A DNA stretch of 64,000 nt from Gordonibacter urolithinfaciens. GTDB lineage: Bacteria > Actinomycetota > Coriobacteriia > Coriobacteriales > Eggerthellaceae. Of this stretch, positions 14,598-47,953 are shown piece by piece; the stretch's first letter is position 1, and each line of letters starts with the position of its first letter. The position numbers and the translations under genes are program-made. The notes under the pieces were generated by a model. It had not been told where the DNA came from, made no database searches, and was given only the letters and a program-made list of their open reading frames with translations. The stretch covers positions 806,001 through 870,000 of the forward strand of contig NZ_LT900217.1 in the NCBI RefSeq assembly GCF_900199375.1. Direction: 5' to 3'.

Positions 14598-14937
14598 CCA
14601 ATACCTCGTTTTCTCTGCGTGTTTACAGCCTTGCACGAGCGAATCGCTCCCATAGGCGTATCGCGGACCGCATATGAAAAAGGAGGCTACGGAGGCGGGC
14701 CAAAAGTGCTGGCTCGGGCCATGCCGCCGTCACCTATATTTTCAGGCTCCATTGCCTGCGTTGGATGGCATTATCTCACCGCGTTGCCTCGGGAGCCATC
14801 CCGTGCGGCGGACAAAGGCAAACCCAGGGGCAGTTAGTGGAGAAGCCGCTATTAGGCCCCTAATCGCGAAAGCGGTTCAACTCATGAGTAAGCCACCTGA
14901 GACTACTCACTTTTCCCACGAATGGCGAAGGGTCGCG

Positions 14938-15121
14938 ACCTGGGGTTTTGCAAATGGCGCGCAAACCACCCGCGCTGATTCACTTACGATTGCAGCTGGC
15001 GGCTTGCGGGTTAAAGGGCGGTTGAGTTTCAAAACGGGCGCTTTCGGCGCTATTGAGCCTCCAAAGTCGGCCCGCTGCACTCTTTGGGACAAAAATAAAA
15101 ACTCAAAGCCCTGAGTTCGAA
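14938..15121 (-). ncRNA. Structured non-coding element, copy B
   Basis: Same layout and length as the element at 12600-12776: minus-strand CGAACTCAGGGC, then a different internal stem (TTGAGTTT at 15022-15029 with AAACTCAA at 15099-15106), then the GCAAGCC...GGTTTGC hairpin with two G-U pairs. About three quarters of the 75 nt at the hairpin end match copy A. It lies 340 bp upstream of the HEPN start. The remaining 14637-14937 and 15122-15425 hold no gene I can support; a CG-rich inverted repeat (AGGGGC...GCCCCT) lies near 14824-14862. Confidence 0.5.
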
Positions 15122-15425
15122 AAAAGTATTTGAAGTTGTCCCGACTTTTGTCCCCGAAGCCGACGAAGCGCGACATGGCGTTACCTGGCGGCACTCGATT
15201 CGAGACGGCACCGAAAACTGGATGCAACTGGAATGACGGGACATCAGAACTGCTGCCATCGAGTGGGAGTAACACCTCTCGTCTAACGTTTTCTTCAGCG
15301 AGGCAGACAACTACCCACACCCTGAAAACATAAGCATCGATTCAAACAACGGAGCTGCATACAGCAAAGTTCTCGCGAAGCATTTTTACATGGTTTAATT
15401 CGCGAACCGAAGAAGAGGGGCGGTC

Positions 15426-17183
15426 ATGAACGACGCAGTCAATCTTGAAAAACTTCTTATTTCTAATCCATATGGCTCCAAAAACGAATTCGAAAGCGTT
15501 GCCACTTTTGAAGAAAGCGATCCATACATCAGATGGCTTTCCATTGATTTCGCCCTTGAAAACGAAGCCGGTTCGTCAAGCGTCTTCATTTATGGCGAGG
15601 CGGAAAAGGCTGACGATGCCGCGCGTTTGTTCGGCGCGCTAATACTGGGAGAACAGGCCTTGCGAGATGGGGAAGATTTAAAGGACATCTGCGACGCTTG
15701 CAACTGCGACCTTTACGAAGCGATTGAAGAACTTGATTGCGAGGGTTTGCTTGAAAGCCCTGACGTATTAGAATGCAACATCCTGTATATCCATAGTCTT
15801 GAGCTTTCCAGTACATTGATGGATGCGAGCAACCTCCACCGGTTCTTCGACCGGATCCCTTGGTATGTGTTTCAATACACCAATGTGATGCCGCAAATCG
15901 TCTACTATCAGATCGCGAGCGTTGAAGGATATTACGAAGAAGCCGCTTCCAAAACAAGCTACGATCGCAGATCCGTAGACGAAACATCGCCGCAGCTATT
16001 TGCCAACAATGGATACACGTCCAGCGAGTCGGGCATTTTGCTTTACAAAATCGTCGACAACGGAACACTCTTGCCATGCGACAACGCCGACAATTCGAGT
16101 TTCATCGAAGATAATCGAAGCGCCGACAACGGAGCGAGTCTCGACGACTCGCTCCTTTTAACTAAAGAAAATCAGGAACTCCGTTCTTTGCCTGAAACAT
16201 CAGCAAAACAGCTAGAGCAAGATTCGAACGATGACCTGGACAAAACCTTCGTCTTCAGCAAGCGATCCTTACTTGAAAATCATATAGGATTGAGCGTCGG
16301 AGCTAACATGGCGCTCGTACCTAGAACCGCCCCGAAAAAACTGACTCAATATGTTGAAGCGGCGATCTTTGCGCACGATCTTGGCGTCCGAATGGATTAT
16401 GCCCTCGAGAAGTACGTCTCCGATTCGGAAGTGGATATTCCACCCATCTACGCCTTGTTTCAAAAGATGTACTTCACCGGCAAGAATCATATTGACGCAA
16501 CTATCGAGCGAATGAAGCCAATAGGCGCTCCAAGCGCCGGAGAGACCTTCGCGGATGTCGCATTGGTGCGAGCTGCTAACACCTATTACGTTGCCGCATT
16601 GCTTTATCGAGAGGGTCACACGATCGAGGCACACGCAATGAGCAGGTTGATGCTTGAGCAGATTGCATGGGCATTCGCCGCTTGCGAGGTGGATGAGTGC
16701 GGCTTAGCGGAGGCAATCGTTCCCACGAAGGCAATTGGCAAGTTAAAAAAGAAAATCAAATCTGTTGGAAAAATGTACGGGGTTCTCTCGAAGTATGTTC
16801 ACATCCCCATTCAAGGCCATTATGAATTCATCGACCTAAGCCATGGAAGAAACGAGGTATTGACGCAATTCGGCGTGCATTCCTATGCGCGAGGGGCGAT
16901 CATCTCGCAACTTGCTGACTTCTGGTCGGCTGTTTACGAGTACACACAATCGCGCCATTTTGAGAAACTGGAGAACTGGATAGAGACCCCTTCGGGATTG
17001 GAAATGAATCCAGAAAGACCCTTCTTATCAGTGATTCAACCGATATGTGAAGAACTGATGAGGGAATATGAGGAGAATTACCCTTCGTATGATGAATACA
17101 TAAAGTCTCATTGGAAAGTAGACGACATATCGGACAACGAACCGAATGATGCGGCTGATGAGCCCTTCGGCGGAAACAAATAA
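15426..17183 (+). CDS. Helical protein with DUF5677-like C-terminal region
   Basis: 585 residues; GAGGGGCGG precedes the ATG. Residues 1-290 are acidic and loosely conserved in look, with a Ser/Asn/Asp-rich linker at about 215-275. Residues about 330-520 are helical and contain RLMLEQIAWAFAACEVDE and then YGVLSKYVHI, the spaced Arg/Glu and LSxYxH motifs seen in DUF5677-type (HEPN-like fold) proteins. No catalytic assignment is made. GC (about 48%) is well below the chromosome. It stands alone, divergent from the HEPN gene, in the defence-like island. The 17184-17622 interval that follows holds no gene I can support. Confidence 0.62.
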   Translation: MNDAVNLEKLLISNPYGSKNEFESVATFEESDPYIRWLSIDFALENEAGSSSVFIYGEAEKADDAARLFGALILGEQALRDGEDLKDICDACNCDLYEAIEELDCEGLLESPDVLECNILYIHSLELSSTLMDASNLHRFFDRIPWYVFQYTNVMPQIVYYQIASVEGYYEEAASKTSYDRRSVDETSPQLFANNGYTSSESGILLYKIVDNGTLLPCDNADNSSFIEDNRSADNGASLDDSLLLTKENQELRSLPETSAKQLEQDSNDDLDKTFVFSKRSLLENHIGLSVGANMALVPRTAPKKLTQYVEAAIFAHDLGVRMDYALEKYVSDSEVDIPPIYALFQKMYFTGKNHIDATIERMKPIGAPSAGETFADVALVRAANTYYVAALLYREGHTIEAHAMSRLMLEQIAWAFAACEVDECGLAEAIVPTKAIGKLKKKIKSVGKMYGVLSKYVHIPIQGHYEFIDLSHGRNEVLTQFGVHSYARGAIISQLADFWSAVYEYTQSRHFEKLENWIETPSGLEMNPERPFLSVIQPICEELMREYEENYPSYDEYIKSHWKVDDISDNEPNDAADEPFGGNK

Positions 17184-17622
17184 ACAATTACGAGTGTGGG
17201 GCACTGAACGACACGATCTTGCCCATTACCGTATCGCTGAAGTTAAAGTAGATACTCTGACTTCGTCCAGTGGCACATTTTCTCCGCCTGCCTCGATCCC
17301 ACCTTCCCGCCCGCAAGCTCGCAAAAGCGCACTGCATGGTATTACTGCATGTCAAATCCAAACTTACCCCTGTCGTCGATGTCGAGACGGGAGCCGATCC
17401 TCGAACGAATGGGAATTGACTCGAATGGGCCACCTTCCGATTTGCGAAAGAGAACGACAAAGTAGTTGCTTATCCTTCAATGCAAGAACAGGAGTAGCTC
17501 TGACACTGGCGTCATGCTTTTGATGTGACGAGCAGCGAGGAAGAACATGAGAGCCGTGAGGCTGGGTGATTTAGGATTGATGCCCTGACCGAAATGCTGG
17601 TGAAAGCGTAAGGAGCAATATC

Positions 17623-18948
17623 GTGAGTGCTCATAAATATGACGATTTGTACAATTATCTAGCTGCTTTCAAAAACGACTCTCCACAAGAGATAGCTCTA
17701 TACCTAGGAGAGCTAGGACAGAAAAGATTCGATTCTTTTGTCGAAGGCGTTGCACCCCTAATATTTGTGGAGGGATTTGAAAATGAATCGGTTTTCAATT
17801 TCGCAGTTGACTCAACTCTTGAAGGTGGCAGCTTTCCCTGTACTGCCCATGATTGCCGCGAGAAGAATCTATATGATCTAGCAAAGTTTTCTGCTTTGTA
17901 TGCTGATAAAGTTCTGATCCATTGCCCGATTGAATCAGCTTTTGAGAATGCGCACGATGATTTCGTTTCAGTTGATGAGCTTGCTTTTGGAATATATCTA
18001 ACTTTGCGACTTGAAAACATTGTAAAAGCAGGCATTGTGGGATTTGTAAGCAACTACGTCCCCCTCTGCAATCACTGTCTTGCTCGGCAAATAGAATTGG
18101 AATCCAAAGCCGAAAATTTAATCTCTGATTTCTGGAATAACTTGATAGATCAGTTCTGCGCTTCAACTGTCTGTACGTTAAAAATCGCTCGAGACGGAGC
18201 CTTGTATGTGGCCATTAATGGAATGGATGCATACGGTTCTCATGAAGAGGTTGATATCGACTTTATCAAAATTCCTCCTGTGTACAAATCTCTGTTTAAG
18301 AAACATGGCGAAACGATACTCGATAAAGATATGCTGACAAGGGGAGGTGTACTTGCCTTCCTCATACCTTTATTGAGCGATTCTTTTACTGCGCTCACTA
18401 ATTCATACTTTACAGGAGGATCGTACTTAACAACACGCCCTGCTCAAATCAGGTTTTTAGAATCAGCAGCACTGACTATTGATTCTCAGAGAAAGCAGAT
18501 GGATTCATTCCGCCAGTTGTCATGCTCGTTTCCCATTGTTCAGAACGCTTCTATAAAAAGCATCTTGGATTTTCGCGCAAGAAACGAAGAATCCTTTGCT
18601 GTGTTCCGAGATACTATAACTAAAGGTCTAAAAGGAAAGCCGATAGATAGCTCAACAATCTCGGAACTAAAAACCGAACTGATTGATCCCGAGATAAATA
18701 AGATAAATCTGGCCATGAAGAACAACAGGGCACGCTTGATTACATCGACAGGCATCGAAGCGGCTATTGGTATTGCAAGCTTCGCTTTAGGGCAGTACGG
18801 TATAGTATCACCAGCTGAGGCAATGACTATTTTCGGCGCAGCAGGTGCTGGTTCGGTTGCGACGCAAGTAGTTAATCATCTACAAGCAGCCAACGTAAAG
18901 AATAATTCCATGTATTTCCTTTGGGAACTTGATAGAAAAAGCCATTAG
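17623..18948 (+). CDS. AT-rich orphan protein, unrecognised
   Basis: 441 residues starting at GTG, with AAGGAG 7 nt upstream. The first 300 residues look globular, with CNHCLARQ near 150; a helical stretch runs 300-375, and a hydrophobic pair near the C-terminus (about 385-425, with GIEAAIGIASFALGQYG) could be membrane-associated. GC is about 42%, the lowest in the window, which points to recent transfer. It is followed by a clear terminator. No family is recognised; the location between HEPN-like and restriction genes suggests, but does not show, a defence role. Confidence 0.65.
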   Translation: MSAHKYDDLYNYLAAFKNDSPQEIALYLGELGQKRFDSFVEGVAPLIFVEGFENESVFNFAVDSTLEGGSFPCTAHDCREKNLYDLAKFSALYADKVLIHCPIESAFENAHDDFVSVDELAFGIYLTLRLENIVKAGIVGFVSNYVPLCNHCLARQIELESKAENLISDFWNNLIDQFCASTVCTLKIARDGALYVAINGMDAYGSHEEVDIDFIKIPPVYKSLFKKHGETILDKDMLTRGGVLAFLIPLLSDSFTALTNSYFTGGSYLTTRPAQIRFLESAALTIDSQRKQMDSFRQLSCSFPIVQNASIKSILDFRARNEESFAVFRDTITKGLKGKPIDSSTISELKTELIDPEINKINLAMKNNRARLITSTGIEAAIGIASFALGQYGIVSPAEAMTIFGAAGAGSVATQVVNHLQAANVKNNSMYFLWELDRKSH

Positions 18949-19100
18949 GTACCGAATGAGTATCATCTGAATGGACAATAGGACAAATGAATGAATGCAT
19001 ATGATCTGGTTCAACTAAGTTGCTTTCATCCGACTTCGTCAACAAATAAAACGATCGAGTGGGAGTGATTCCACACAAAAAACGTCTTATTTCTAGCTAG

Positions 19101-19128
19101 TGCTCCGGAGTTCGCTCTGGAGCATTTT
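19101..19128 (+). terminator. Rho-independent terminator
   Basis: TGCTCCGGAG, loop TTCG, CTCTGGAGCA, then TTTT. Ten stem pairs with one G-U. It lies 150 bp after the stop of the AT-rich orphan gene and would end its transcript. Confidence 0.8.
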
Positions 19129-19303
19129 CGTTATACACAACACAGCTGGAAAAGCTACAAGCCTTTGAAAACCGAATACCTCGATGCAAGAATCGCATAA
19201 TGAAGGACCTGATTCGCAAAACGGGAGCGCCACTATCACCTCGTGCGACCAACGAAGCCGACCTACGAATTGATACCCATTTCTTAACTACCCAGGCCAG
19301 CTG

Positions 19304-19340
19304 ATACCCAAAAGACATGCTTATAATGTCTTTTGGGTAT
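19304..19340. repeat. Perfect 15-bp inverted repeat
   Basis: ATACCCAAAAGACAT and ATGTCTTTTGGGTAT flank a 7-nt AT-rich loop. There is no T tract, so a terminator is uncertain; the 3' side of the decayed restriction operon lies 57 bp away. The rest of 18949-19396 holds no gene I can support. Confidence 0.65.
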
Positions 19341-19396
19341 TCTGGAATGCGCCCACACCAAACGGAACGCGCGTTGATTAATCCAAGAAACAAGTT

Positions 19397-19924
19397 TTAG
19401 AAAAGCTCGCGAATCTCGACGTCGAGCTCCCAGGCGATCCGGGACATGATGTCGATAGACAGATTGCAGCGCCCGACCTCGCCTGCGCTCGACGGCTCCC
19501 AGAGGTCGTCGCGCAGAACTTCAAGTATTCGCTCTTCGTCCAACCCATCGCATCCATGATCCCGTTCAGCCGGTTGCCAAGAAGGAGGTCGAGGCCAACG
19601 AGGCGATATTGGCTTGAGAACATCGAATACGTGAGAGACTATGCCGTCACCGATGTCGTTTTCGACAAAGCGTCCGTGTGCGAACAATTTGCTCCTGTTC
19701 CCCTCAAGTGCAATGTCGCCAATCCTCATGACGTTATATGTGTGCAGATAATCATCATCGCGCGTTGTCGCCGAGGGATTGAATCGCATGTTAGCGACGG
19801 AGATTGCTTTGTCCAAGCCGTAACGTCCGTCGTTCTTTTCGTCGCGACGGGCATACATCTCCCCTAATTTACGCTGTCCCCAAGCACCACAGCAACGTTG
19901 TCGTACTTGGAAACCTAAATGGCT
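19397..19924 (-). pseudogene. Decayed hsdS fragment fused to an XRE-regulator remnant
   Basis: Downstream of hsdR and on the same strand. The first part reads QRKLGEMYARRDEKN...VENDIGDGIVSHVFDVLKPIS, the conserved end-piece of a type I specificity subunit; the frame then shifts (near 19615-19620) to ...GNRLNGIMDAMGWTKSEYLKF. The last 31 codons (GEVGRCNLSIDIMSRIAWEL to ELF) match the C-terminus of XRE-family regulators without their helix-turn-helix. No full protein can be made. It is likely the relic of a second, recombining hsdS cassette and a controller gene. Confidence 0.7.
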
Positions 19925-19932
19925 GACGCAGT

Positions 19933-22900
19933 CTAGCCGAGGTCGAAACCGCCGGAAAGAACGAACTCGCGCAGAAGCTTATCAAGCATGATAGAGACCT
20001 TAAAGGGTGGTATGGTCTTACCCTCGCGTTGCTCAAAGAATGCCTTGGCCCGCCTTGGGTCTGCTGTTCTCTTGAGTGAGTCGAAGCGTCCGAACTCGTT
20101 GATGTTGCCTTCCGTCACATGTCCAGCCATGAGTCGGCGCAGCTTTCCTTCATCGATGCCAAGCGCCTCAACGAGGGCCGTAACCTGTCCGGCTTTGCCG
20201 CGCACCGCAAACTCGTTGATGTAGTCCATGAACGTTTTGCCGGGTTCGATGGCGAGGTCGAAGCCCTGCGCGGCTTGTATCACTATCTCTGCGAGGCGCT
20301 GCTGCTCTTGGTCGAGGGTCGCGAACGAGCCATGCAAATCGTCTAGCATCGCGTCGAGTTCGGACTGCTCGCCACCGGCCGTCAGACGCTTGAGCCACTT
20401 CTCGAAGTTGGCGTTCATGTAGGCAGTGTCGATGTGACCAGTGTCTATTTCGGTCAGGTAGCCGTGGATATCGTAGGGCACGTCCTCGCCGCCCGCCTCG
20501 CCGCCAGGGCCGAATAGCTCCTTGTAGCGCAGCGCTAGCACGAGGTATGCGCTCTCGTCGAAGCAGAGTGCCACGGTGGTCTTGCCATCCTCGTGCTCGA
20601 ACTCGTATGTGAGCTCATCCCAGTTGAACCCCTGAATTTTTGCCGCCTCCAGCGTGTCGGTAAGCTCCTTGAAGAGCTTGGCGAACTTCGCGCACGCCTC
20701 ATCCGAGTCGGGCAGGCGGTCGAAGCTTTCTATGCCCGCGATCTTGAAGACACCGACGATTTGTCCGTACACGTCGTTCGCCCAACGCAGATTGCCCTCG
20801 AGTTTGCTCGCGAAGAGGCCCAAGGGCCGGTCGCCTGAGTACAGGCCGAACGCGGCGTGCATGTTCTGCTCCATTGTATGCGGGTAGCGGTACCAGCGTA
20901 CGGTGCCGAAGGGCTTCTCGGGGCCGAAAAGGCGGTTCGTGCGGCTGAACGCCTGGATCAGGTGCTCGTATTCCAGCACCTTGTCGAGATAGAGCGTGTT
21001 CACCCACTTGGAGTCAAAGCCGGTGAGCATCTGGTCAACCACGATGAGCAGATCAAGCTGCTCATCGCGCTTTTTCTCAATGCCCGCGTAAGGCTTCTTG
21101 TGAGCGAGACGAGCCGCCACGTCGCGCTTGAAAGCAGCATGGCTCGGTATGGTGCAGTGCTTGCCGAAGGTCGCGTTGTAGCCCTCCAGCACCTCTACCA
21201 GTCCGTCCTCCTTGTAGACAGCACCACCGTTGTTGTCGATGTTCGGATCGAAGAGCGCCGTTGTCTTGAGTCCCGGGTGCTCGTCCCGGAAGATGCGATA
21301 GTAGCTGATCGCCTCGGCAATGCTGCTCGTGGCGAGAATCGCATGGAAGGTGCCCGCCAGCGAGCGCCGCTGCCAGCCGCCGCAGATGTCGTCCACCACG
21401 GCCCGCAGGTGTTCCGAATTACCCGTGCCGTCCGCGCCGCAATACTGGCTGCGGGGCACATAATACTCGATGCCGTGGATAGGTTTTCCGTCCCCATCTG
21501 TGGCGTCGGATGCCATGGGCAGCGCCATGAAGCGCAGATAGACCCTTTTCTTGGCGGGGTCGGTCAGAGCCTCGGCAACGCTTCCCGCTTTGGCGTGGTG
21601 TAGCGCCACCTCTTCTCGCAGGTCGTCGTCTCGGAAGGTGAGCACCTTGTACGGGTCGAATCCCAGCACGTTCTTATCGCGGATGCCGTCGGCGATGGAG
21701 TAGCGGTGCAGCTCGTCACCGAACACGTCCACGGTCGTGTTCTGCTTCTTTTGGTTCTCGTCATGGATGGGCGTTCCCGTGAAGCCGAAGTACATCGCTC
21801 AGGGGAAGGTCTTGCGGATGGTCTGCATCATGTCGCCGAAGGTGGACCTGTGGCACTCGTCCACGATGAACACGATGCGCTTAGAACGCATACGCTCCAA
21901 GTCGGCAATACGGCTGGATTCTTCGCCGATGTTGCTCATCTTCTGTATGGAGGTTACGATCAGAGTGTCGTCGGGGTTGTCGCTCTTGAGCTTCGCGACG
22001 AGCACGTCTGTGTTCTCGGTCTCGGCCACTGCCTGCCTTCTCTGCTCCTCGGAAAGGTCGGCCCCTGCGAAGTTGCGGTATTCGTCGAGCGACTGCGTGC
22101 CCAGCTCTATGCGGTCTACGAGAAATATGACCTTGTCAGCATCCTTGGATGAGGCGATGAGCTGGGCGCTCTTGAAGCTTGTCATCGTCTTCCCGGAGCC
22201 CGTAGTGTGCCATATGTGTCCACCTCGGCTACTCGCCTTGTCCCACTTGGATTGCCGAACCCGCCCTGATATGCGCGACGCGGCAAAGTACTGGTAGCTG
22301 CGCATGACCTTGAGCGTGTTGTCCTTGCTGTCGGCTACAGTGTAGAAGCCAATGAGCTGGTGTGCCATGGGGATGGACAGCAGGTCGCGCGCGACGTCTT
22401 TCCAGTAGTTCACCGGCTCGTTGTCGAAGTCCGCCCAGTGGAAGTTATATGCCTCGAAGTCGCCGTCCGCACTGGGGTTGGCGAAGTAGACTGTCTCGTC
22501 GGGGTTCATGGCCACGAAGACCTGCACCAGGCTGAACATCCGCGTGAACACGCCCTCGTGCGCGTACTTTCGTATCTGGTCTCGAGCCTGGCTCACGGGC
22601 ACACCGCTGCGCTTGAGCTCGATGTGGATGAGTGGCATGCCGTTAATGAGCAACATCACGTCACCGCGACGCGTGGGAAGCATCTTGCTCTTGGTGGAGA
22701 AGTAGGGCTGGCGAGCAATCTGGTAACGGGAGCGCCCACCCGCTATCTCGGCGCGGTCGTAGATGTGAAGGCTCACCTGCTTGCCGAAGTGAAGCAGGTC
22801 GGCCTCGTTGTCGCGCGTTATGGACACGGTCTTGCCGTTAATGAAGCCGTTGAGGCGCATGGGTGTGCGCAGCTCGACTATCTGCTCGATAATCTGAGAC

Positions 22901-23100
22901 ATCTCGCCGGCGGTAAGCGGTTGCCCGTTCAACCGGTCGATGCCACGGTTGTTCTCGAAGAGGATCTGCGCCCAGTTGTCGAGCAGATCCTGCTCAGTGG
23001 GATGGTTGAGCGTGCCGTTCTTCCAGCCGTAGTCGTTCTTCAATACCCCGACGAGAGCATCCTCAAAGGCCAGCTCGTTAGTAAATACATCTGACATCAT
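19933..23100 (-). pseudogene. hsdR: Type I restriction endonuclease subunit HsdR, split by a TGA
   Basis: Two pieces in one frame, 433 and 620 residues, are separated by a single in-frame TGA (21799-21801). Upstream: PD-(D/E)xK nuclease (MPLIHIELKRSG near residue 154), Walker A HTTGSGKTMTSF (302), and VDECHRS (411). Downstream begins MYFGFTGTPIHDENQKK, the next helicase motif, and runs to a helical C-terminus. Joined, about 1055 residues is the normal HsdR length. A CGA to TGA change would explain the stop. Unless suppressed, restriction is lost while modification stays. It follows hsdS after 13 bp. Confidence 0.85.
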
Positions 23101-23113
23101 ATATTCCTGCCTA

Positions 23114-24331
23114 CTATACGAACATCTTTTCCAAGCACGCAGCTTTTAGGTTCCTTAGCAAAGTGAGCTTACGCTGGTGAAGGGTGATGAGATCGTCGAG
23201 GTCGCGGAAGAAGGAGCAAATTTGGCTTTGCTCAGTCTGCGTTGGGATTGCAATTTGTCGCTTTTTCCAATCGTCAACGTCAAAAACTAGCTTTTCGATA
23301 TCAACCCCAAATGAGCTCAAAAAATAGCATGTGCACATTGTTTTTGTCATGGAAAGAAGAGCCCAAAATTCGCTTGATATTTTCGCATTTCCAACAAGAA
23401 CAAGATACTCGTTTGAAACTATCGCTCCAGATAAGGATGGAGGTACTAGACCATTACCGCCATGGACAACCTGTCTTTTTGATATTAAAAAATCCCCAGT
23501 CTGCAATTCCTGATAATTCTTAACTAGGATATCGCGGCCTTTAACCACGGAACGCTGTACTACCCCTGCGTTCTTGCGTTTTACTGTGACTAGCTGATAT
23601 TCCTTATCATCCTCTATTTCGACCGTCCGAAAAACGATATCGGCCACCTCCCCCAGCTTACGCTGTTTCCAAGGGTCAGTGAAACCGGCGAATCTGATTT
23701 CGGGAACGGATGCACCGTCTCGCGGAAACATCTTTTCGAGCAATGCCTTCTTGAGTACGACAAACTTATCGTACTTACGCTGGTGAAGGGTGATGAGGTC
23801 GTCGAAGCTGAGCGCCAACGATGAAATTGCCTGCTGCTCCCTTGTCGTTGGATATGGGAAATCGACATCGGCGATATCATCATTGTGAATGTGAACGACC
23901 GATTTGCCTTGCGCTCTTTTCGCTAGCTCTACATGCGCCTTTCCGTACGTGATAACCAGTGCAACGTAGTCAGGATCCAATTCCGCTCCAGGGGTTAAAA
24001 CGTTCAGATCGCCACCTAATACGATATCTGATCTGCGAACGGACGAGGCGACCGCTATATCTTCTGCGGTTTCGCCAGAGGCAGGCACAATCACCTCGTT
24101 GCCGCAAGAGAACAAAGAACCTTCGCGCTCAACAGCAAACGTATCGACGTCGTCTATGCGCGTTTGGTATCGCGTATACAAGCGTCCGTAGAGAATCAGC
24201 GGGACTCCCGAATCGCAAATATCGGCCTTGCTGTACCCACGGCCTTTTGCGAAAGAACAGAGCTCCCCCAGCTTACGCTGTTCCCAAGGGTCAGTGAAAC
24301 CGGCGAATCTAATGGCAGGCACGTGGTTCAT
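23114..24331 (-). CDS. hsdS: Type I specificity subunit HsdS
   Basis: 405 residues with two target-recognition halves, each opened by IRFAGFTDPWxQRKLGE (about 7 and 211) and each closed by a helix with DDLITLHQRK. The DNA behind these repeats is nearly identical between halves (23648-23695 and 24263-24310 differ at 1 of 48 bases; 23168-23199 and 23774-23805 at 1 of 32), so domain swapping by recombination is possible. ATG overlaps the hsdM stop (ATGA). Base composition is AT-richer than neighbours, as is common for HsdS. It sets the DNA sequence methylated by HsdM. Confidence 0.93.
   Translation of the reverse strand: MNHVPAIRFAGFTDPWEQRKLGELCSFAKGRGYSKADICDSGVPLILYGRLYTRYQTRIDDVDTFAVEREGSLFSCGNEVIVPASGETAEDIAVASSVRRSDIVLGGDLNVLTPGAELDPDYVALVITYGKAHVELAKRAQGKSVVHIHNDDIADVDFPYPTTREQQAISSLALSFDDLITLHQRKYDKFVVLKKALLEKMFPRDGASVPEIRFAGFTDPWKQRKLGEVADIVFRTVEIEDDKEYQLVTVKRKNAGVVQRSVVKGRDILVKNYQELQTGDFLISKRQVVHGGNGLVPPSLSGAIVSNEYLVLVGNAKISSEFWALLSMTKTMCTCYFLSSFGVDIEKLVFDVDDWKKRQIAIPTQTEQSQICSFFRDLDDLITLHQRKLTLLRNLKAACLEKMFV
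23648..23695. repeat. hsdS internal repeat, copy 1 (pairs with 24263-24310)
   Basis: A 48-bp direct repeat encoding the start of the second recognition half; the partner at 24263-24310 differs at one base. A shorter related stretch (TTACGCTGTCCCCAAG) occurs at about 19867 in the hsdS remnant. These are natural crossover sites. Confidence 0.75.
24263..24310. repeat. hsdS internal repeat, copy 2
   Basis: Partner of the repeat at 23648-23695, encoding the start of the first recognition half. A second pair (23168-23199 and 23774-23805) encodes the LITLHQRK helices. Confidence 0.75.
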
Positions 24332-26913
24332 CGAGCATCACCGCCCAGCAGCGTGGCGAGCTCTCGGATACCAGCCATGTCGAACTCGTTACCGGTGAGC
24401 TGTTCCAGTATGCTAATAAGTTCATGTTCAGACTCGCGGATCCGCTCGTCTATATCAGCATAGGTCGTGGCATATTTGTCAGCTAGAGCGCGGATGTCGT
24501 CGATAAGCGATCCGATGACAGTATCCGGCATGGTTTCGATACGTCGGACAAGCGGATCAATCCATTTTGCCGAAAGCAGCAAACGCGCTTGGTCGTCGCT
24601 AAGCTCTTCGATGGCTTTCTTCGACTTGCCGTCGAGCACCGACTTTGCCTCCTTGAGCCGGCGTTTCAAGTCGCGCTCCTCATCGTAGAACCGCGCCGCT
24701 GCATCAAGTCGGCTTGGCAGCGAGTCCGCAGAGCGCGCCTCGTCACCCATCTCGGCACGCAGGGTTTTGGCCATCCCCTTGAGCTTGGATGCGACGAAGG
24801 CATCGCCCGACTCGTTGACAGCGTCTCCTGCGTCCGACTTCTCCTCGTCGGTCAGACCTTCCAGGATCTCCGCGATCTCAGATGCGACAACGGGAAGCCT
24901 GAACTCCATCGCGGCCACTTCCGCCGCATCCTCGGCGAGCAGTTCCCGCTGCACCAGCTCGAAGGGCAGGACATGTCCGACCCATCCGTCCTGCACCTCG
25001 ACGTCCTTGCCGCGCTGCTTCTTCAAGACCATACGTGGGTCTACGCGCCGCACCGCGTCGAAGCCCTCGGTCTGCAGCACTTCGAGATCAATGGCAATCT
25101 GCTGCCACTCGTCATCGAGCGCCTGGTAGGCGTCGTAACGGTCGATTAAATCGATACCCTCGAGGCGACTGAACAGCTCCGAGGACAATTGTGCCTCCTC
25201 GGAGCTGCGGACAACAAGCGACGGTTCGTCTACCAGCTCCTCGTAAAGCCACGGCTCGAAGTCCGCAAAACGTCCGGCGAACTCTTCGCGCCAGGCACCT
25301 ACGGCCTTGCTCTTGCGGACGGTCGATTCAATATCCTCGCTCGCCAGACGCATACTTGCGGGGTTGACCTGTTCGAACAGCTCCTCGCGTAGACCTGGTA
25401 ACGCGCGCCAGTAGTGCTTGAGCGCATCCACTTCGGATGTGGGTATACCACCGTACATGGTGGCATAGATGTCCCAGCCGCACGTTCGCTCGGAGGAGTC
25501 AACGTAGCGCGGAATGTTCAGGTTGTAGTCGTTGGCCCGCACATCGTCTTTTCTCACCACTCGGCAGTAGCGGTCCTGGTCGCCCCTGGCTTCGTAGGCG
25601 TCCACAATGCGCCGGATGTCGGAGGCGCGGAGCTTGTTGTTCTTTCCCTCCTTCACGTAGCCCTTCGACGCATCGATGATCAGGATGTCGTCGCGTTCGC
25701 GCGTCTTGCGCAGCACCATGACGATGGTGGGGATGCCCGTGCCGAAGAAGATGTTGGCCGGAAGCCCAATGATGGCGTCTATCTTGTCGCTCTCCACGAG
25801 ATTGCGCCGAATCTGACCCTCCTCGCCGCCGCGGAAGAGCACGCCGTGGGGCAGCACGATGCACATGATGCCGTCCGGTTGCAGATGGTAGAGGTCGTGC
25901 AGGAGGAATGCGTAATCCGCCTTGGACTTTGGCGCGATACCGTAGTCGTCGAAACGCGGGTCGGGTGCATCCGGCGCGTCCCAGCGCTGCGAGTAGGGCG
26001 GGTTGGATACGACGGCATCCACGAACAGCGGCTCGTAGGTCTCGGGGTGTCCCTCTTCGAACCACGGCCAGTCGTCAGCCAGAGTGTCGCCGTTTCGCGT
26101 CACAATGTTGGCCGGGTCTATGCCGCGCATCACAAGGTTCATGCGCGTGAGGTTGTAGGTGTTTTCTTTCAGCTCCTGCGCGTAGTACTTGATGCGCCCT
26201 TCGCTGCCCATTTGTCGTGCCACGGCCTGGCCGATATTTATGAGCAGGCTGCCCGAACCGCTTGTGGGGTCGTATATCTGGATCTCGTGACGGTCGCGCA
26301 GATGGTGGGCCACGATCTCGCTCATGAGCAACGATACCTCGTGGGGCGTGTAGAACTCGCCCGCCTTCTTGCCAGCGTTGGCGGCGAAGTTGGAAATCAG
26401 GTACTCGTAGATGTAACCGAGAACGTCGTAGCCCTGCCGCCCATCCATCGGAATGTCCTTGATGAGGTGCAGAAGGCTGCTGATGGCCTTGGTGCGGGCA
26501 CCCGAGGTGTCACCCAGCTTGGAGAGGCCCGTCTCCAGCGTCTCGAAGATGCGGTCGAATACGTGCCGGTGGTGCGGGTCAACAAGGCGCGAGAACGCGC
26601 TGAGTGCATCTGTCACATCGGACACGTCGAAGTCGGAACCTTTGGCGAGCCATGTGGAGTAAAGATGCTCATAGGCTATGAAGTAGCCGAGGTTCGGACG
26701 GACGAAGCCCACGATGTCGGGGTCTGCTTCGGTCACGGACACCATGTCTGCGTCCTCGAAGCCCTGACCGTGCAGCCACGACTCTTCCTTTTCCGAAAGA
26801 AACTTGTAGAAGATGAACCCGAGTATGTAGTCCTTGTACTCGCTTGCCTCGATCTTCGATCGCATCTCGTTAGCCGAGGCCCAGATTTTTGCTGCTAGCT
26901 GCTGCTTGTTCAT
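24328..26913 (-). CDS. hsdM: Type I modification methyltransferase HsdM
   Basis: 861 residues. HsdM N-terminal helical domain (1-150), then the N6-adenine methyltransferase: SAM motif DPTSGSGS (about 215) and catalytic NPPY (about 303). Residues beyond about 520 form a long charged, coiled-coil-rich extension, making the protein roughly 340 residues longer than classical HsdM. Both motifs are intact, so methylation should work with HsdS. It is the second gene of an operon headed by a ribbon-helix-helix protein. Confidence 0.94.
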   Translation of the reverse strand: MNKQQLAAKIWASANEMRSKIEASEYKDYILGFIFYKFLSEKEESWLHGQGFEDADMVSVTEADPDIVGFVRPNLGYFIAYEHLYSTWLAKGSDFDVSDVTDALSAFSRLVDPHHRHVFDRIFETLETGLSKLGDTSGARTKAISSLLHLIKDIPMDGRQGYDVLGYIYEYLISNFAANAGKKAGEFYTPHEVSLLMSEIVAHHLRDRHEIQIYDPTSGSGSLLINIGQAVARQMGSEGRIKYYAQELKENTYNLTRMNLVMRGIDPANIVTRNGDTLADDWPWFEEGHPETYEPLFVDAVVSNPPYSQRWDAPDAPDPRFDDYGIAPKSKADYAFLLHDLYHLQPDGIMCIVLPHGVLFRGGEEGQIRRNLVESDKIDAIIGLPANIFFGTGIPTIVMVLRKTRERDDILIIDASKGYVKEGKNNKLRASDIRRIVDAYEARGDQDRYCRVVRKDDVRANDYNLNIPRYVDSSERTCGWDIYATMYGGIPTSEVDALKHYWRALPGLREELFEQVNPASMRLASEDIESTVRKSKAVGAWREEFAGRFADFEPWLYEELVDEPSLVVRSSEEAQLSSELFSRLEGIDLIDRYDAYQALDDEWQQIAIDLEVLQTEGFDAVRRVDPRMVLKKQRGKDVEVQDGWVGHVLPFELVQRELLAEDAAEVAAMEFRLPVVASEIAEILEGLTDEEKSDAGDAVNESGDAFVASKLKGMAKTLRAEMGDEARSADSLPSRLDAAARFYDEERDLKRRLKEAKSVLDGKSKKAIEELSDDQARLLLSAKWIDPLVRRIETMPDTVIGSLIDDIRALADKYATTYADIDERIRESEHELISILEQLTGNEFDMAGIRELATLLGGDAR

Positions 26914-26989
26914 CCACTACTCCTGTTCTCGCCGGAATCCAGCGTAAGTCGCCGATGGGTATGAATCCAGGTAACTGCGTACACCGTGG

Positions 26990-27193
26990 TCAATCTTTCT
27001 CCGTCAGTCGCTCAATGAGGCATTGTTTTACGAGCGAGGTGAAGGTGAGGCCATTGAGGTTGGCATACTCCTTCGCCGACTCGCGCATAGTGCGCGGAAG
27101 CCTCAGTGTTACAGTGACAAGCTCCGAGTCAACGAGATAGGATTGCAGTTCCGAGGTCGGAGCGCCCGATTCGACAAGCTCTGAGTACTTCAT
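26990..27193 (-). CDS. Ribbon-helix-helix protein at the head of the hsd operon
   Basis: 67 residues; ATG at 27193 with AGGGG just upstream (a longer reading runs through unrelated DNA). Residues 24-65 (VTVTLRLPRTMRESAKEYAN then TFTSLVKQCLIERL) fit a CopG/MetJ-type ribbon-helix-helix fold. It lies 76 bp before hsdM. Probably an autoregulator of the hsd operon, or an antitoxin whose toxin is missing; no toxin gene is adjacent. Confidence 0.75.
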   Translation of the reverse strand: MKYSELVESGAPTSELQSYLVDSELVTVTLRLPRTMRESAKEYANLNGLTFTSLVKQCLIERLTEKD

Positions 27194-27221
27194 ATGAACC
27201 CCTACCAAGTAACGCCATTGT

Positions 27222-27240
27222 AAATACACGTCGAAATACA
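27222..27240. promoter_or_regulatory. Direct-repeat operator candidate
   Basis: AAATACA occurs twice with a 12-bp period, about 30 bp upstream of the ribbon-helix-helix start codon. Short direct repeats of about this spacing are typical operators of this fold. TAGAAT just beyond (minus strand, near 27243) could be a -10 box. Confidence 0.4.
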
Positions 27241-27258
27241 TTCTAACAGACAACAACA

Positions 27259-27993
27259 TTAAGCATGCCTCGGATCGACCCGCATCGCGCGCGTCAGCAG
27301 GGCGCATCCGAGCTTTCGGGCATCCGATGCGGCCACCGGCTCGCCGAGGAACATCCACGCATGCGCGCCGTTGCCCGACCGCGAGCGTTCGATGGCGACG
27401 GGCACGCCCTCCCGCTCGCACACGCTCCGAAACGCGCCCACCGCCTGCTGCCAGTCGTCCTTGTCGAAGTCGGCCGCGAGCACGCGCATCTTGTCGTCAT
27501 CAACAAGCGGATAACCCGCGACGATTCCCACGCCATCCCGTCCCGAGCCTCGGAAATGCGCCAGCAGCGCAGCGTCGTCGAGCGGCAAGAACTCGCGGTT
27601 CGCACAGTCCGCGCACTTGACGCGGGGCTTTCCGCACACGCTGCCCTTCCACTCGTTGGCGCATGCGGGCGTGTAGCCGACACGCCCCGTCTTCTTGTTG
27701 AAGTAGCTTTTCGCGTGCACGTCGCTGCGCATGGCGAACAGCGAGTTGAACAGCGCGAGCTTCTCGGCGGATGAGCTCGCCGAGGTCACGACGCCTTCGT
27801 CCGCCAACCGGCTCGCCTCGAAACGAGCGCGCCCCGCCTCCCACGTTTCGCAGGTCGCGTAGCGCCTCGCGCCGTCGAGAGCCTCGCACACCACGACCTC
27901 GCCATCGACCGTCGCCGAAGCCAGCTTCTCGACGAAGCGATACTCGACGCCGGCGATCAGCGTGCGTGCGGCCTGCGGCGAACCATCGTCCAT
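27259..27993 (-). pseudogene. Truncated TOTE-type archaeo-eukaryotic primase gene (5' fragment)
   Basis: 244 residues. Residues about 65-240 match the primase domain of TOTE conflict-system proteins: four cysteines (ACANEWKGSVCGKPRVKCADC), FLPLDDAALLAHFRG, then LAADFDKDDW with the metal-binding Asp pair and IERSRSGNGAHAWMFL. In full-length relatives a helicase and nuclease follow; here the frame stops 7 residues after LLTRAM, close to the ribbon-helix-helix gene. The abrupt end suggests that arrival of the hsd block deleted the remainder. A free-standing primase cannot be excluded. Confidence 0.65.
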
Positions 27994-28094: not shown

Positions 28095-29153
28095 TCAACC
28101 AACGTCCGAGCAGTGCGCCTCCCTCGCAAAGTGCGTCTCCGCGATTTCGTCAAGCTGCATGCGTATGCTTTCGAACGGCAATCCCAGATCGAGCGTGCGC
28201 ACGCTTATGCGGTTGCCGCTCATCCGGTAGACCCCATCGGGCTGAATCTCTTCGTCCGTCTTGGCGTAGAGCAGCAGGCCCGATACAGTATGCGGCACTT
28301 CGGCAAGCTCGGCCTCCTTGTTCTTCACGTAGGCGAAGATCTGATATAGGTTGCCTGAATGGATGCTGCGCTTGTCGAACCGCCGCTGGGTCGTGCATGA
28401 GTAGTACTTCGCGTCGATGATGAGCACAGCGCCCCCGTGACAAAGCATGACATCGCTCTTCATCGTTGGCAACAGGTCGTCGAAATCATCGTCGAGAGCC
28501 CAACCGATACAAGAAGCTTGAGCGGCAAGCTCCGGATGCTCCTGCCGATAGTATTCCAGGATGAACTTTTCATACAGACGGCTCATGCGTTGCTCGTCAA
28601 AGAAGTCCATGAGCTTGGCACTTCCATCTGCCTGCGTCTGGAGCAGCCCTTTGGCAACAAGCCAGCACACGCCCATGAGCATGCGGTATGTCTGGTTATT
28701 CCGATCGAAACGCATATGCCAATCTACCGTGGCGAGGTCAACGTCGCGCACATCGGAAAAGAAGACCATCAGGCTCCTGAGTTCCTTCTTGCGAGCCTTG
28801 CTTATGTCGGCGTGAAGAAGCAACCTGCACGTCGCCTTGAGGATGCCGTTCATGCGCGTGTCCACGCTGAATTCGTCATAGGCGCATATCATCTGTCGGC
28901 GCATCACGCTGCGCGTCTTCACCGACTCAGACACCTCGATCTTGCCCCGCAGGGATGAGATCGCCTCGGTACGGTCCATATACTCGCGCCCCAACCCGCG
29001 TTTGATCTGCGAGCTTATGCCTCGCGAAAGGATGGCCGCGCAAAGCTCCGCTGCGTTGTCAAACTGCTCGGTTGCAACGTCGCGGTAACCCCGCCCTCTC
29101 AGCACCTGGAAAGCATACGCCAGCATGTGGTAGATATTCTGAATGCGGATCAT
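28095..29153 (-). CDS. mcrC: McrC-like subunit of McrBC restriction system
   Basis: 352 residues starting at the ATG that overlaps the mcrB stop (ATGA). Residues 1-200 are the McrC helical part (IRIQNIYHMLAYAFQVL is a family hallmark); the PD-(D/E)xK nuclease core lies at about 235-275 with KSDVML and VLIIDAKYY. McrC supplies the nuclease of the GTP-driven, modification-dependent restriction complex. Both catalytic elements look intact. Confidence 0.9.
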   Translation of the reverse strand: MIRIQNIYHMLAYAFQVLRGRGYRDVATEQFDNAAELCAAILSRGISSQIKRGLGREYMDRTEAISSLRGKIEVSESVKTRSVMRRQMICAYDEFSVDTRMNGILKATCRLLLHADISKARKKELRSLMVFFSDVRDVDLATVDWHMRFDRNNQTYRMLMGVCWLVAKGLLQTQADGSAKLMDFFDEQRMSRLYEKFILEYYRQEHPELAAQASCIGWALDDDFDDLLPTMKSDVMLCHGGAVLIIDAKYYSCTTQRRFDKRSIHSGNLYQIFAYVKNKEAELAEVPHTVSGLLLYAKTDEEIQPDGVYRMSGNRISVRTLDLGLPFESIRMQLDEIAETHFAREAHCSDVG

Positions 29154-31330: not shown

Positions 31331-31615
31331 CGGTTTCCCCTTCTCTACCATTTACGGTTATCGGCTTGTACGAATGGTTGCTCGCAAGCTTTGCATGGAA
31401 TGACGGGACGTCAAGATTCGCCGCCCATTCCCCAGACTTAAGAAGACGTCCTTTCACTCCTCCCGTCCAATAATCTCATCCATGATACCGCTTCCCGCCG
31501 AGCAGCAAAAGCATCCCCTATTTCCCCCAAATTCGCCCTCCGGGAGGTGGACTCGCCGCGCCCGTCACGCGACAATGGCCCCGTCAACCAATCGCACCGC
31601 CCCAGGAGGCCCACC

Positions 31616-45241: not shown

Positions 45242-47953
45242 CTATGCCTTCTCCACCCGCACGGCGCACACCTTGTACTCGGGAGCCTTCGACACGGGGT
45301 CGAGGGCGGCGATGGTGAGCCAGTTGCTGTTTCCGTCCTGGAAGTGGAAGGGCATCCACGTCTGGCCGGGGTTAGTCTTGTCCGACACATGGGCCGTGGT
45401 CTTGAGGGAGCCGCGGCGCGACGTCACGCGCACCCGGTCGCCGTCGGCGATGCCGAGAGCGGCGGCGTCGGCATCGTTCAGCTCGATGAACGAGCTGCCG
45501 GACAGCGCGCCCAGGCCCTCGGTGCGCCCGGTCATCGCGCAGGCGTTGTACTGGGCGAGCACGCGGCCCGTCATCATGGCCAGCGGGTATTCCTCGTCGG
45601 GAAGCTCTGCCGACGGCCGGTAGTCCGGCGTGGAGAACGCGCCCACCCCCTGCGCGAACTCGTGCCGGTGCAGGATGGGCGTGCCGGGGTGCCCCGCGTG
45701 CGGGCACGGCCACTGAAGGCCCCGCCCGGCCACCTCGTCGCCGTCGAGGCGCACATGGCCCACGCCGCCGTACGACGGCGTGACCGAGGCTATCTCTTCC
45801 ATGACCTCCGCGGCGGTCAAACGCGGCTGCCCGTAGCCCATGCGGTTCATGACCTCCGTGAACACGTCGGTGTCCAGCCGCGGCCCCGCCGGCCCCTCCA
45901 CGGCCTTGCGCACGCGCTGCACGCGGCGCTCGGTGTTCGTGAACGTGCCCTCCTTCTCCGCGTAGCTGCGGCCGGGAAGCACGACGTCGGCCAGCTTCGC
46001 CGTCTCGGTGAGGAACAGGTCCTGCACCACGAGGAAGTCGAGCGCCGCGAGCGCCCGCAGCACGTGCCCCGTGTCCGGGTCGGTGCGCACCGGGTCCTCG
46101 CCGAACAGGTACAGGCCGCGCACACGCCCCTCCAGCATGGCGGGGAAGCATTCGGTAGCCTTGAGTCCGCGCTCTCGCGGCAGGCTCGCGCCCCAGGCGC
46201 GCTCGAAGCGGCGCAGCACCTCGGGGTCGGCCACCTTCTGGTAGCCCGGCAGGTCGTCCGGGCCGGCACCCATGTCGCAGGCTCCCTGCACGTTGTTCTG
46301 CCCGCGCAGCGGGTTCACGCCGCCGCCGGGCTTGCCGAGGTTGCCCGTGATCATGGCGATGTTCGAGAGCGCCATCACGCCGTCGGTGCCGGTGGAGTGC
46401 TCGGTCACGCCCAGGCAGTACACGATGGCGGCCGCGCCCGCCCCTCCGTACATCTTCGCGGCGGACACGAGGTCGCGCTGGTCGATGCCGCAGATCTCGG
46501 CCACGCGCGCGGGCGTGTAGTCGCGCACCGTGGCGGCCAGCACCTCGATGCCCTCCGTGCGCTCGCGCACGAACTCGGCATCGTAGAGGCCCTCGGCCAA
46601 AAGGACGTTCACAATGCCGTTCGCGAACGCCACGTTCGTGCCGGGCCGCAGCTTCAAATGGAGGTCCGCCTGCGCGGCCAGCCCGATGTCGCGCGGGTCC
46701 ACCACGATGAGGCGGCAGCCCCGCTCCACGGCGGCGCGCAGCTGCATGCCGATGACCGGATGGGCCTCCTCGGGGTTCGACCCCACGAGCATGACCACGT
46801 CCGCCTTCCGGCACACGTCGTCGATGGAGTTCGTCATCGCTCCCGAGCCAAGCATGGTCGCCAGACCGGCGACGGTGGGAGCGTGTCAAACACGCGCGCA
46901 GCAGTCCACGTTGTTCGTGTGGAGGCTGATGCGTGCCATCTTCTGGAACAGGTAGATGTCCTCGTTGGTGGACCGCGAGCAGGCGAAGGCCGCAAGCGCC
47001 TCCCCGCCGTACTCGTCGCGCAGCTCGGCGAAGCGGCGCGCCACCAGGTCGAGCGCGTCGTCCCAGCTGGCAGGCTCGAGCTCGCCCGTGGCGGCATTGC
47101 GCACGAGCGGCGCGGTCAAGCGGTCGGGCGCATCGACGAAGTCGAAGCTGCCGGAGCGGCCCTTCACGCACAGCAGCCCCTTGTTCGACGGCCCCGGCGC
47201 GCCCTCCGCATCAACGATGCGGCCGTCCTTCACCACGAGGTCCAGCTGGCAGCCCACGCCGCAGTGCGGGCAGGTGGTGCGCACGCGCTCCGTCTCCCAC
47301 GAGCGGTAGGCACCGCGGCGCTTCTCCACGAGCGCGCCTGTAGGGCACGCCTGCGCGCAGTTGCCGCACGACTCGCAGGCGCTCGCGCGCCAGTCCGGCC
47401 CGAACGGGGCCTCGACGGTCGTGCGCGTTCCGCGCTTGCCCGTGCGCAGCGCATGGTTGCGCGCGGCGGCGTTGCAGGCGCCCACGCAGCGCTGGCAGCG
47501 GATGCACAGGTTCGGGTCGTAGCGCAAAAACGGGTTGCCCTCAACCACGGGCTCCGGCGCGCGCGGCGCCGGGTGCGCCGGGCCTTCCACGCCATACTCG
47601 CGGCAGAGGTCGGCCAGCTCGCAGGCGCCGTTTTTGTCACACGAGAAGCACGGGGCGCCCGCGCCCTGCCCGTGGTCGGCGATGATCAGCTCGAGCGCGA
47701 TGCGGCGGTAGGCCGCAAGGCGCGGCGAGTCGGTGGTCACGGCCATGCCGTCCCATACGGCCGTCGAGCACGACGGCACCGGGTGGTCGAGGCCTTCCAC
47801 GTCCACCACGCACACGCGGCACGAGCCGACGGCGCTCACATCCTTCAAGTAGCAGAGCGTCGGGATGCGGATGCCCGCCTCCCGCGCCGCCTCCAGCACG
47901 GTCGTGCCCGCAGGCACCTCGCGCGCGATGCCGTCTATCGTGACGCTAGGCAT
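45242..47953 (-). CDS. fdhA: Formate dehydrogenase alpha subunit, selenoprotein
   Basis: 903 codons read through one in-frame TGA (46886-46888) as selenocysteine 356, in the context CARV-Sec-HAPTVAG, the known Sec site of formate dehydrogenases. Order: [2Fe-2S] ferredoxin domain (Cys34, 45, 48), a second cluster region (CFSCDKNGACELADLC), two [4Fe-4S] motifs (CIRCQRCVGAC; CESCGNCAQACPTG), the molybdopterin domain cluster (CPHCGVGC, about 245), then the Mo/W-bis-MGD fold. It oxidises formate to CO2 and passes electrons to the partner subunit. The start overlaps the partner stop by 8 bp. Needs SelA/B/C from elsewhere in the genome. Confidence 0.95.
46857..46873 (-). promoter_or_regulatory. bSECIS hairpin for selenocysteine insertion
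   Basis: On the coding strand GTCGCC, loop GGTCT, GGCGAC, starting 12 nt after the TGA. The apical GGTCT and the distance match the E. coli fdhF SECIS read by SelB. Six perfect stem pairs. Confidence 0.88.

What the first reader, a model, noticed from the sequence alone, without database searches (positions are those of the whole stretch)
21796..21804. Single TGA splits HsdR between helicase motifs
KTFP-stop-AMYFGFTGTP lies in one frame; one C to T change (CGA to TGA) explains it. Methylase and specificity genes are intact, giving a likely modification-only type I system.
Basis: partly seen in the sequence, partly recalled or inferred. Interest (0 to 1): 0.55.

Follow-up and report, generated by a model that had tools for sequence, protein, structure and literature searches.

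The report
Type I restriction gene with stop
A bacterium carries an ordinary DNA-marking and DNA-cutting system whose cutting gene is broken by one stop codon while the marking genes look whole, so it probably marks its DNA without cutting foreign DNA, as is already known from other bacteria.

Summary
On the minus strand hsdR (23100..19933) has one in-frame TGA at 21801..21799, between DECH and GFTGTP of the motor domain. Both parts match HsdR. hsdM and hsdS look intact, and searches found no second HsdR in the one-contig genome. Best reading: a nonsense mutation removed restriction and left methylation, as in print for S. aureus RN4220 and Mycoplasma agalactiae PG2 (passages).

Because UGA faces Cys and the genome has tRNA-Sec, SelB and a formate dehydrogenase with UGA in this window, I tested recoding. 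Two presumed Sec sites share a GGUCU-loop hairpin; the hsdR site does not. Restart at an ATG 3 nt after the stop remains possible but has no visible ribosome-binding site.

An hsdS domain remnant lies behind hsdR; relatives carry extra hsdS pieces and a recombinase not found here. The locus looks like a decayed shuffling type I system. Ordinary.

The parts
21799..21801 (-). in-frame TGA inside hsdR
21802..23100 (-). hsdR N part, 433 aa: nuclease domain and first half of the motor domain up to the DECH box
   Evidence: HSDR_N, SWI2_SNF2, ResIII; EcoR124I HsdR to residue 426
19933..21795 (-). hsdR C part, 620 aa from ATG 21795: GFTGTP motif, second motor domain, C-terminal domain
   Evidence: SWI2_SNF2 148-187, T1R_D3-like, EcoR124_C; EcoR124I HsdR from residue 431
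23114..24331 (-). hsdS, 405 aa, two target-recognition domains, intact
   Evidence: Methylase_S twice; start overlaps hsdM stop by 4 nt
24328..26913 (-). hsdM, 861 aa, intact; NPPY is seen in its translation
   Evidence: N6_Mtase E 1.3e-101, HsdM_N; 80% identical over residues 1-861 to L043
19601..19885 (-). remnant of an hsdS target-recognition domain without a start, behind hsdR
   Evidence: 67% over 91 aa to an hsdS of L024 and 48% over 94 aa to L025; direct repeat of the hsdS boundary sequence at 19856-19884. Against: no Pfam family at E <= 0.01 for 19400-19897, and not among the two Methylase_S matches of the genome

Best explanation
hsdM-hsdS-hsdR is a type I restriction-modification operon whose last gene has a nonsense codon in the first motor domain. 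Translation stops after residue 433. The product keeps the nuclease domain and the ATP-binding half of the motor but lacks GFTGTP, the second motor domain and the C-terminal domain, so no working restriction subunit is made. hsdM and hsdS lie upstream and are untouched, and the M2S1 complex methylates on its own, so the cell marks its DNA without cutting unmarked DNA. The codon is probably a recent mutation in a locus already decaying from a shuffling type I system. Shown: sequence, frames, homology, no other HsdR found. Inferred: loss of restriction, active methylation, recency, history.
For: Single stop, both parts homologous. hsdM 80% identical over its full length to L043. One HSDR_N match, one SWI2_SNF2 match and one two-domain hsdS frame in the genome at E <= 0.001. 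None of 79 usable relatives (of 80 kept from 477) has a stop at this site. In a family survey 3 of 106 SWI2_SNF2 matches in 138 genomes hold an in-frame stop inside the match, this one included; those of G120 and G109 are not at this site. The hairpin of the two presumed Sec sites is absent here. No ribosome-binding site is visible before ATG 21795, unlike hsdM. Precedents: S. [quoted passage not shown] M. agalactiae PG2, truncated hsdR with type I methylation kept (PMC9465063, passages).
Against: The part behind the stop shows no faster amino-acid change than in intact relatives (Tajima chi-square at most 2.65 in 10 comparisons), so no decay is visible; a recent mutation explains this, but so would retained function. 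An in-frame ATG sits 3 nt after the stop. The stop aligns with Cys in a genome with selenocysteine machinery. Reads were not available.
Confidence: 0.8

Rival explanations
1. Two-piece HsdR: ribosomes that end at the TGA restart at the ATG 3 nt downstream, and the two fragments assemble into a working or weak restriction subunit.
For: ATG at 21795 directly after the stop; C part open over 620 codons and not accelerated.
Against: No ribosome-binding site visible before that ATG. The Met is native to the 9 closest relatives (AM before [FL]FGFTGTP in L043-L051), so its position is not an adaptation. The cut lies inside one motor domain. None of 79 usable relatives has the same split.
Confidence: 0.06
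2. The UGA is read as selenocysteine (or read through), giving full-length HsdR.
For: tRNA-Sec above the gathering score, SelB above its cut-off and two formate-dehydrogenase-type matches with an in-frame TGA, one of them below the family's cut-off, in this genome; UGA aligned with Cys in 6 of the 9 closest relatives and in the more distant L030.
Against: Both presumed Sec sites form a hairpin with a GGUCU loop 18 nt after the UGA in the fold of the 45 nt behind it; hsdR does not, and its stretch folds no better than shuffled sequence. The residue is variable (13 kinds), so probably not catalytic. Cys codons are 4 of 40, 5 of 31, 7 of 36 and 4 of 29 of the codons one step from TGA in four relatives, so a hit on one is not remarkable. 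Limits: folding z-scores do not separate the control sites from shuffles either, and one longer fold of the window control (48 nt) lost the hairpin.
Confidence: 0.03
3. Sequencing or consensus error; the gene is intact.
For: Otherwise undisturbed frame and normal constraint; one base is enough.
Against: One-contig assembly, 99.97% complete; a substitution is not the usual homopolymer indel error (recalled).
Confidence: 0.08

Closest known systems
S. aureus RN4220 Sau1 system (hsdR premature stop codon)
   Different: The strain used for genetic manipulation, different type I family; S. aureus genomes often hold two hsdM and two hsdS with one hsdR (same passages)
Mycoplasma agalactiae PG2 hsd locus
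   Same: hsdR truncated, type I methylation still detected, several hsdS in the locus (PMC9465063, passages)
   Different: Two inserted bases in a poly(A) tract, which the authors think may switch; shuffling of hsdS there is not known. Here a stop codon outside such a tract
Type I loci with extra hsdS pieces in related genomes (L043, L025, L049)
   Same: HsdR of the same lineage (L043 HsdM 80%, HsdR N part 87%); L025 hsdS shares a domain family with the window's hsdS and with the remnant
   Different: They carry extra hsdS pieces and a recombinase; the window has one remnant and no match to such a recombinase
EcoR124I HsdR (2w00)
   Same: Same domain order; N part E about 1e-49, C part 5.6e-24
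   Different: Intact; distant sequence

Membership tests
Type I restriction-modification system | hsdM, hsdS and hsdR in one locus | tested here: met
Type I restriction-modification system | intact N6-adenine methylase and two-domain specificity subunit | tested here: met
Type I restriction-modification system | full-length HsdR with nuclease, motor and C-terminal domains in one chain | tested here: not met
   one TGA splits it; the domains are present in two pieces
Methylation-only type I system | no other HsdR in the genome to supply restriction | tested here: met
   one locus at E <= 0.001; HsdR too remote for these searches is not excluded
Methylation-only type I system | active methylation of a bipartite motif, no restriction | not testable with these tools
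   needs methylome and transformation assay
Selenoprotein | host has Sec machinery | tested here: met
Selenoprotein | SECIS hairpin just downstream of the UGA | tested here: not met
   seen at both presumed Sec sites, in one of the two printed folds for the window control
Phase-variable (shuffling) type I locus | extra hsdS cassettes plus recombinase | tested here: not met
   one remnant, no recombinase match in the window at E <= 1e-3; genome's best match 35% identical over residues 146-297 of 315

The most novel reading that the evidence does not exclude
The stop followed 3 nt later by a native ATG makes a two-piece HsdR by coupled restart, with nuclease and half a motor on one chain and the rest on the other, giving low or tunable restriction while methylation stays full.
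Probability: 0.05. Interest if true: 0.5.

Novelty: new member of a known kind. Interest (0 to 1): 0.12.

Why it matters
It predicts a strain that marks DNA with a type I pattern but no longer blocks unmarked DNA through this system, which bears on its transformability and gene uptake. More generally, a UGA aligned with Cys in a genome with selenocysteine machinery can still be an ordinary nonsense codon, and the genome's own presumed Sec sites give a usable control.

Tried and rejected
Selenocysteine: rejected on the missing hairpin, with two presumed Sec sites as controls. Folding z-scores did not separate the controls from shuffles (FDH1 0.13, -0.41, -0.57; FDH2 1.01, 0.12, 0.59; hsdR 0.80, 0.20, 0.17), and in the longer fold (48 nt) FDH1 took another structure; the argument rests on the GGUCU-loop hairpin in the 45-nt folds. 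Rfam over 19000-27500: one match, far below its gathering score. Rate tests for decay behind the stop: no acceleration (7 of the 9 closest relatives used, L046 partial and L049 frame-broken left out; synonymous distances are 0.7-1.9 or not computable, so age cannot be resolved). In the N part 2 of 10 comparisons gave a faster window (chi-square 4.24 and 4.33), the wrong part for a decay signal. Viral contigs: 2 relatives at 46-47%, not followed up. Plasmids: 83 records with distant homologs, none covering 80% of the query.

Paper searches: 'hsdR'+'premature stop codon'+'type I restriction' 25 papers, 20 listed; 'hsdR'+'split'+'type I restriction'+'two polypeptides' 98 papers with at least 3 terms, 15 listed, and the one with all four (PMC2147049, passages) does not describe a split HsdR in those passages; 'hsdR'+'modification-only'+'type I' none; 'Eggerthella'+'restriction-modification'+'type I'+'hsdS' 2, unrelated by title; 'hsdR'+'pseudogene'+'methylome'+'type I' 12, listing only. 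PMC7557576, PMC6789123 and PMC13216270 were seen as passages and not used as precedents. In one search the motif search hit a wrong place in L120, so 79 of 80 loci are usable; L068 and L109 showed short frames that I did not follow up. Alignment A1, the query, held one gene twice (L003 and L022). The 95-residue hsdS remnant found no Pfam family; it rests. No structure was predicted.

Full report
Observation. The minus-strand frame 23100..19933 encodes HsdR and carries a single TGA at 21801..21799. Pfam assigns HSDR_N and SWI2_SNF2 positions 1-144 to the part before the stop, and SWI2_SNF2 148-187, T1R_D3-like and EcoR124_C to the part after. Against EcoR124I HsdR the alignments of the two parts end and start at residues 426 and 431. 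The stop thus sits inside the first motor domain, between DECH and GFTGTP (motif names and domain roles recalled). No other stop or frameshift was seen in hsdR.

Neighbours. hsdM (26913..24328, 861 aa) overlaps hsdS (24331..23114, 405 aa) by four bases, and 13 bases separate hsdS from hsdR. hsdM matches L043 at 80% over residues 1-861. hsdS has two specificity domains. hsdR is last, so the stop should not silence the other two by polarity (inference). The genome is one contig of 3,294,868 bases and holds one SWI2_SNF2 match, one HSDR_N match and one match to the C part at E <= 0.001, so no second HsdR of these families was found that could substitute. Of the four genomes given as the same genus, three have no match to the N part and the fourth only distant ones (best 39%), which suggests the locus came by transfer.

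Relatives. A scan of GTDB genomes gave 477 relatives, of which the best 80 are kept. The nine closest (L043-L051, best segments 74-91%; the next is at 68%) bear titles of Coriobacteriaceae, Coriobacteriales, Atopobiaceae, Olsenella and Lancefieldella rimae, and one 'uncultured actinobacterium'. At the stop position they have Cys (6 of 9) or Thr (3 of 9). Over 79 usable loci 13 kinds of residue occur, mostly Lys, Arg and Asn, and no stop. A family-wide survey found 3 of 106 SWI2_SNF2 matches in 138 genomes with an in-frame stop inside the match, this one included; the other two are not at this site. L049, whose best segment is 91% identical, appears to have a frameshift in the N part of hsdR, though it is a metagenome-assembled contig.

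Recoding. UGA opposite Cys is the classic sign of selenocysteine (recalled), and this genome has tRNA-Sec (70.6 bits, gathering 47), SelB (350 bits, cut-off 242.25) and two formate-dehydrogenase-type matches with one TGA each, of 793.1 and 195.7 bits against a cut-off of 666.25. The stronger lies in the window, TGA at 46888..46886 in the context VDCCARV*HAPTVAGL. In the fold of the 45 nt behind the UGA both presumed Sec sites form a hairpin with a GGUCU apical loop starting 18 nt after it; the hsdR site does not. In a longer fold the window control took another structure, and z-scores do not set the controls apart from shuffles, so this test is good but not complete. The hsdR stretch folds like shuffled sequence (z 0.42 and 0.02). 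In four relatives Cys codons make up 4 of 40, 5 of 31, 7 of 36 and 4 of 29 of the codons one step from TGA, so a nonsense mutation at a Cys codon is no surprise. I reject recoding with high but not full confidence.

Restart. An ATG follows three bases after the stop. It is the native Met of the nine closest relatives, and no purine-rich ribosome-binding site is visible before it, in contrast to hsdM. Restart is possible, but the two chains would have to rebuild one motor domain.

Selection. Nonsynonymous change is low compared with synonymous in both parts wherever the ratio could be computed (0.04-0.27), and the part behind the stop is not faster in the window than in intact relatives (10 comparisons, chi-square at most 2.65). 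With synonymous sites near or beyond saturation this only says that the stop is young relative to these divergences, or that function persists.

Locus history. Behind hsdR lies a 95-residue hsdS domain remnant (19885..19601), 67% identical over 91 aa to an hsdS of L024, although Pfam does not recognise it. L025 carries two hsdS frames on opposite strands; one has a half like this remnant and a half 72% identical to the first domain of the window's hsdS. L043, L025, L049 and L050 have extra hsdS pieces; in L043, L025 and L050 a phage-integrase-family recombinase was confirmed by profile, and one in L049 is seen by resemblance only. The window has no match to the three recombinases, and the genome's best match to that of L043 is 35% identical over part of the protein. 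I infer that the locus descends from a shuffling system, lost its recombinase and cassettes, and then lost restriction.

Verdict. This is a nonsense-inactivated hsdR in a type I operon that should still methylate. The same state is in print for S. aureus RN4220 (PMC5399793, passages) and, by a frameshift, M. agalactiae PG2 (PMC9465063, passages). Interest is low.

Noticed in passing
window 45242-47953 (-), TGA 46888..46886: Formate dehydrogenase alpha-type frame with TGA in the context VDCCARV*HAPTVAGL, presumably a selenoprotein, with a GGUCU-loop hairpin behind the UGA; ORF listing splits it in two.
   Followed up: yes
window 28095-31351 (-): McrBC-like pair: AAA_5 protein (733 aa) and McrBC-component protein (362 aa), upstream of the type I operon.
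   Followed up: no
window 27259-27993 (-): TOTE-type primase domain in a 244-aa frame that matches only positions 1-158 of 230; looks truncated.
   Followed up: no
window 26993-27193 (-): Small protein of 67 aa in front of hsdM with weak, below cut-off resemblance to DUF6290 and CopG antitoxin.
   Followed up: partly
L049:1906-5098: hsdR of the relative with the best local identity appears frameshifted in its N part; hsdS pieces lie on both sides.
   Followed up: partly
window 12777-18948: Three proteins of 619, 585 and 441 aa beside the type I locus with no match in Pfam or PADLOC at E <= 0.001.
   Followed up: no
L022:823-1824, L048:6994-8004, L050:642-1637: A protein of 331-336 aa starting MSY sits just before hsdR in L022 and L048 and between two hsdS pieces in L050; the window has no room for it between hsdS and hsdR.
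   Followed up: no
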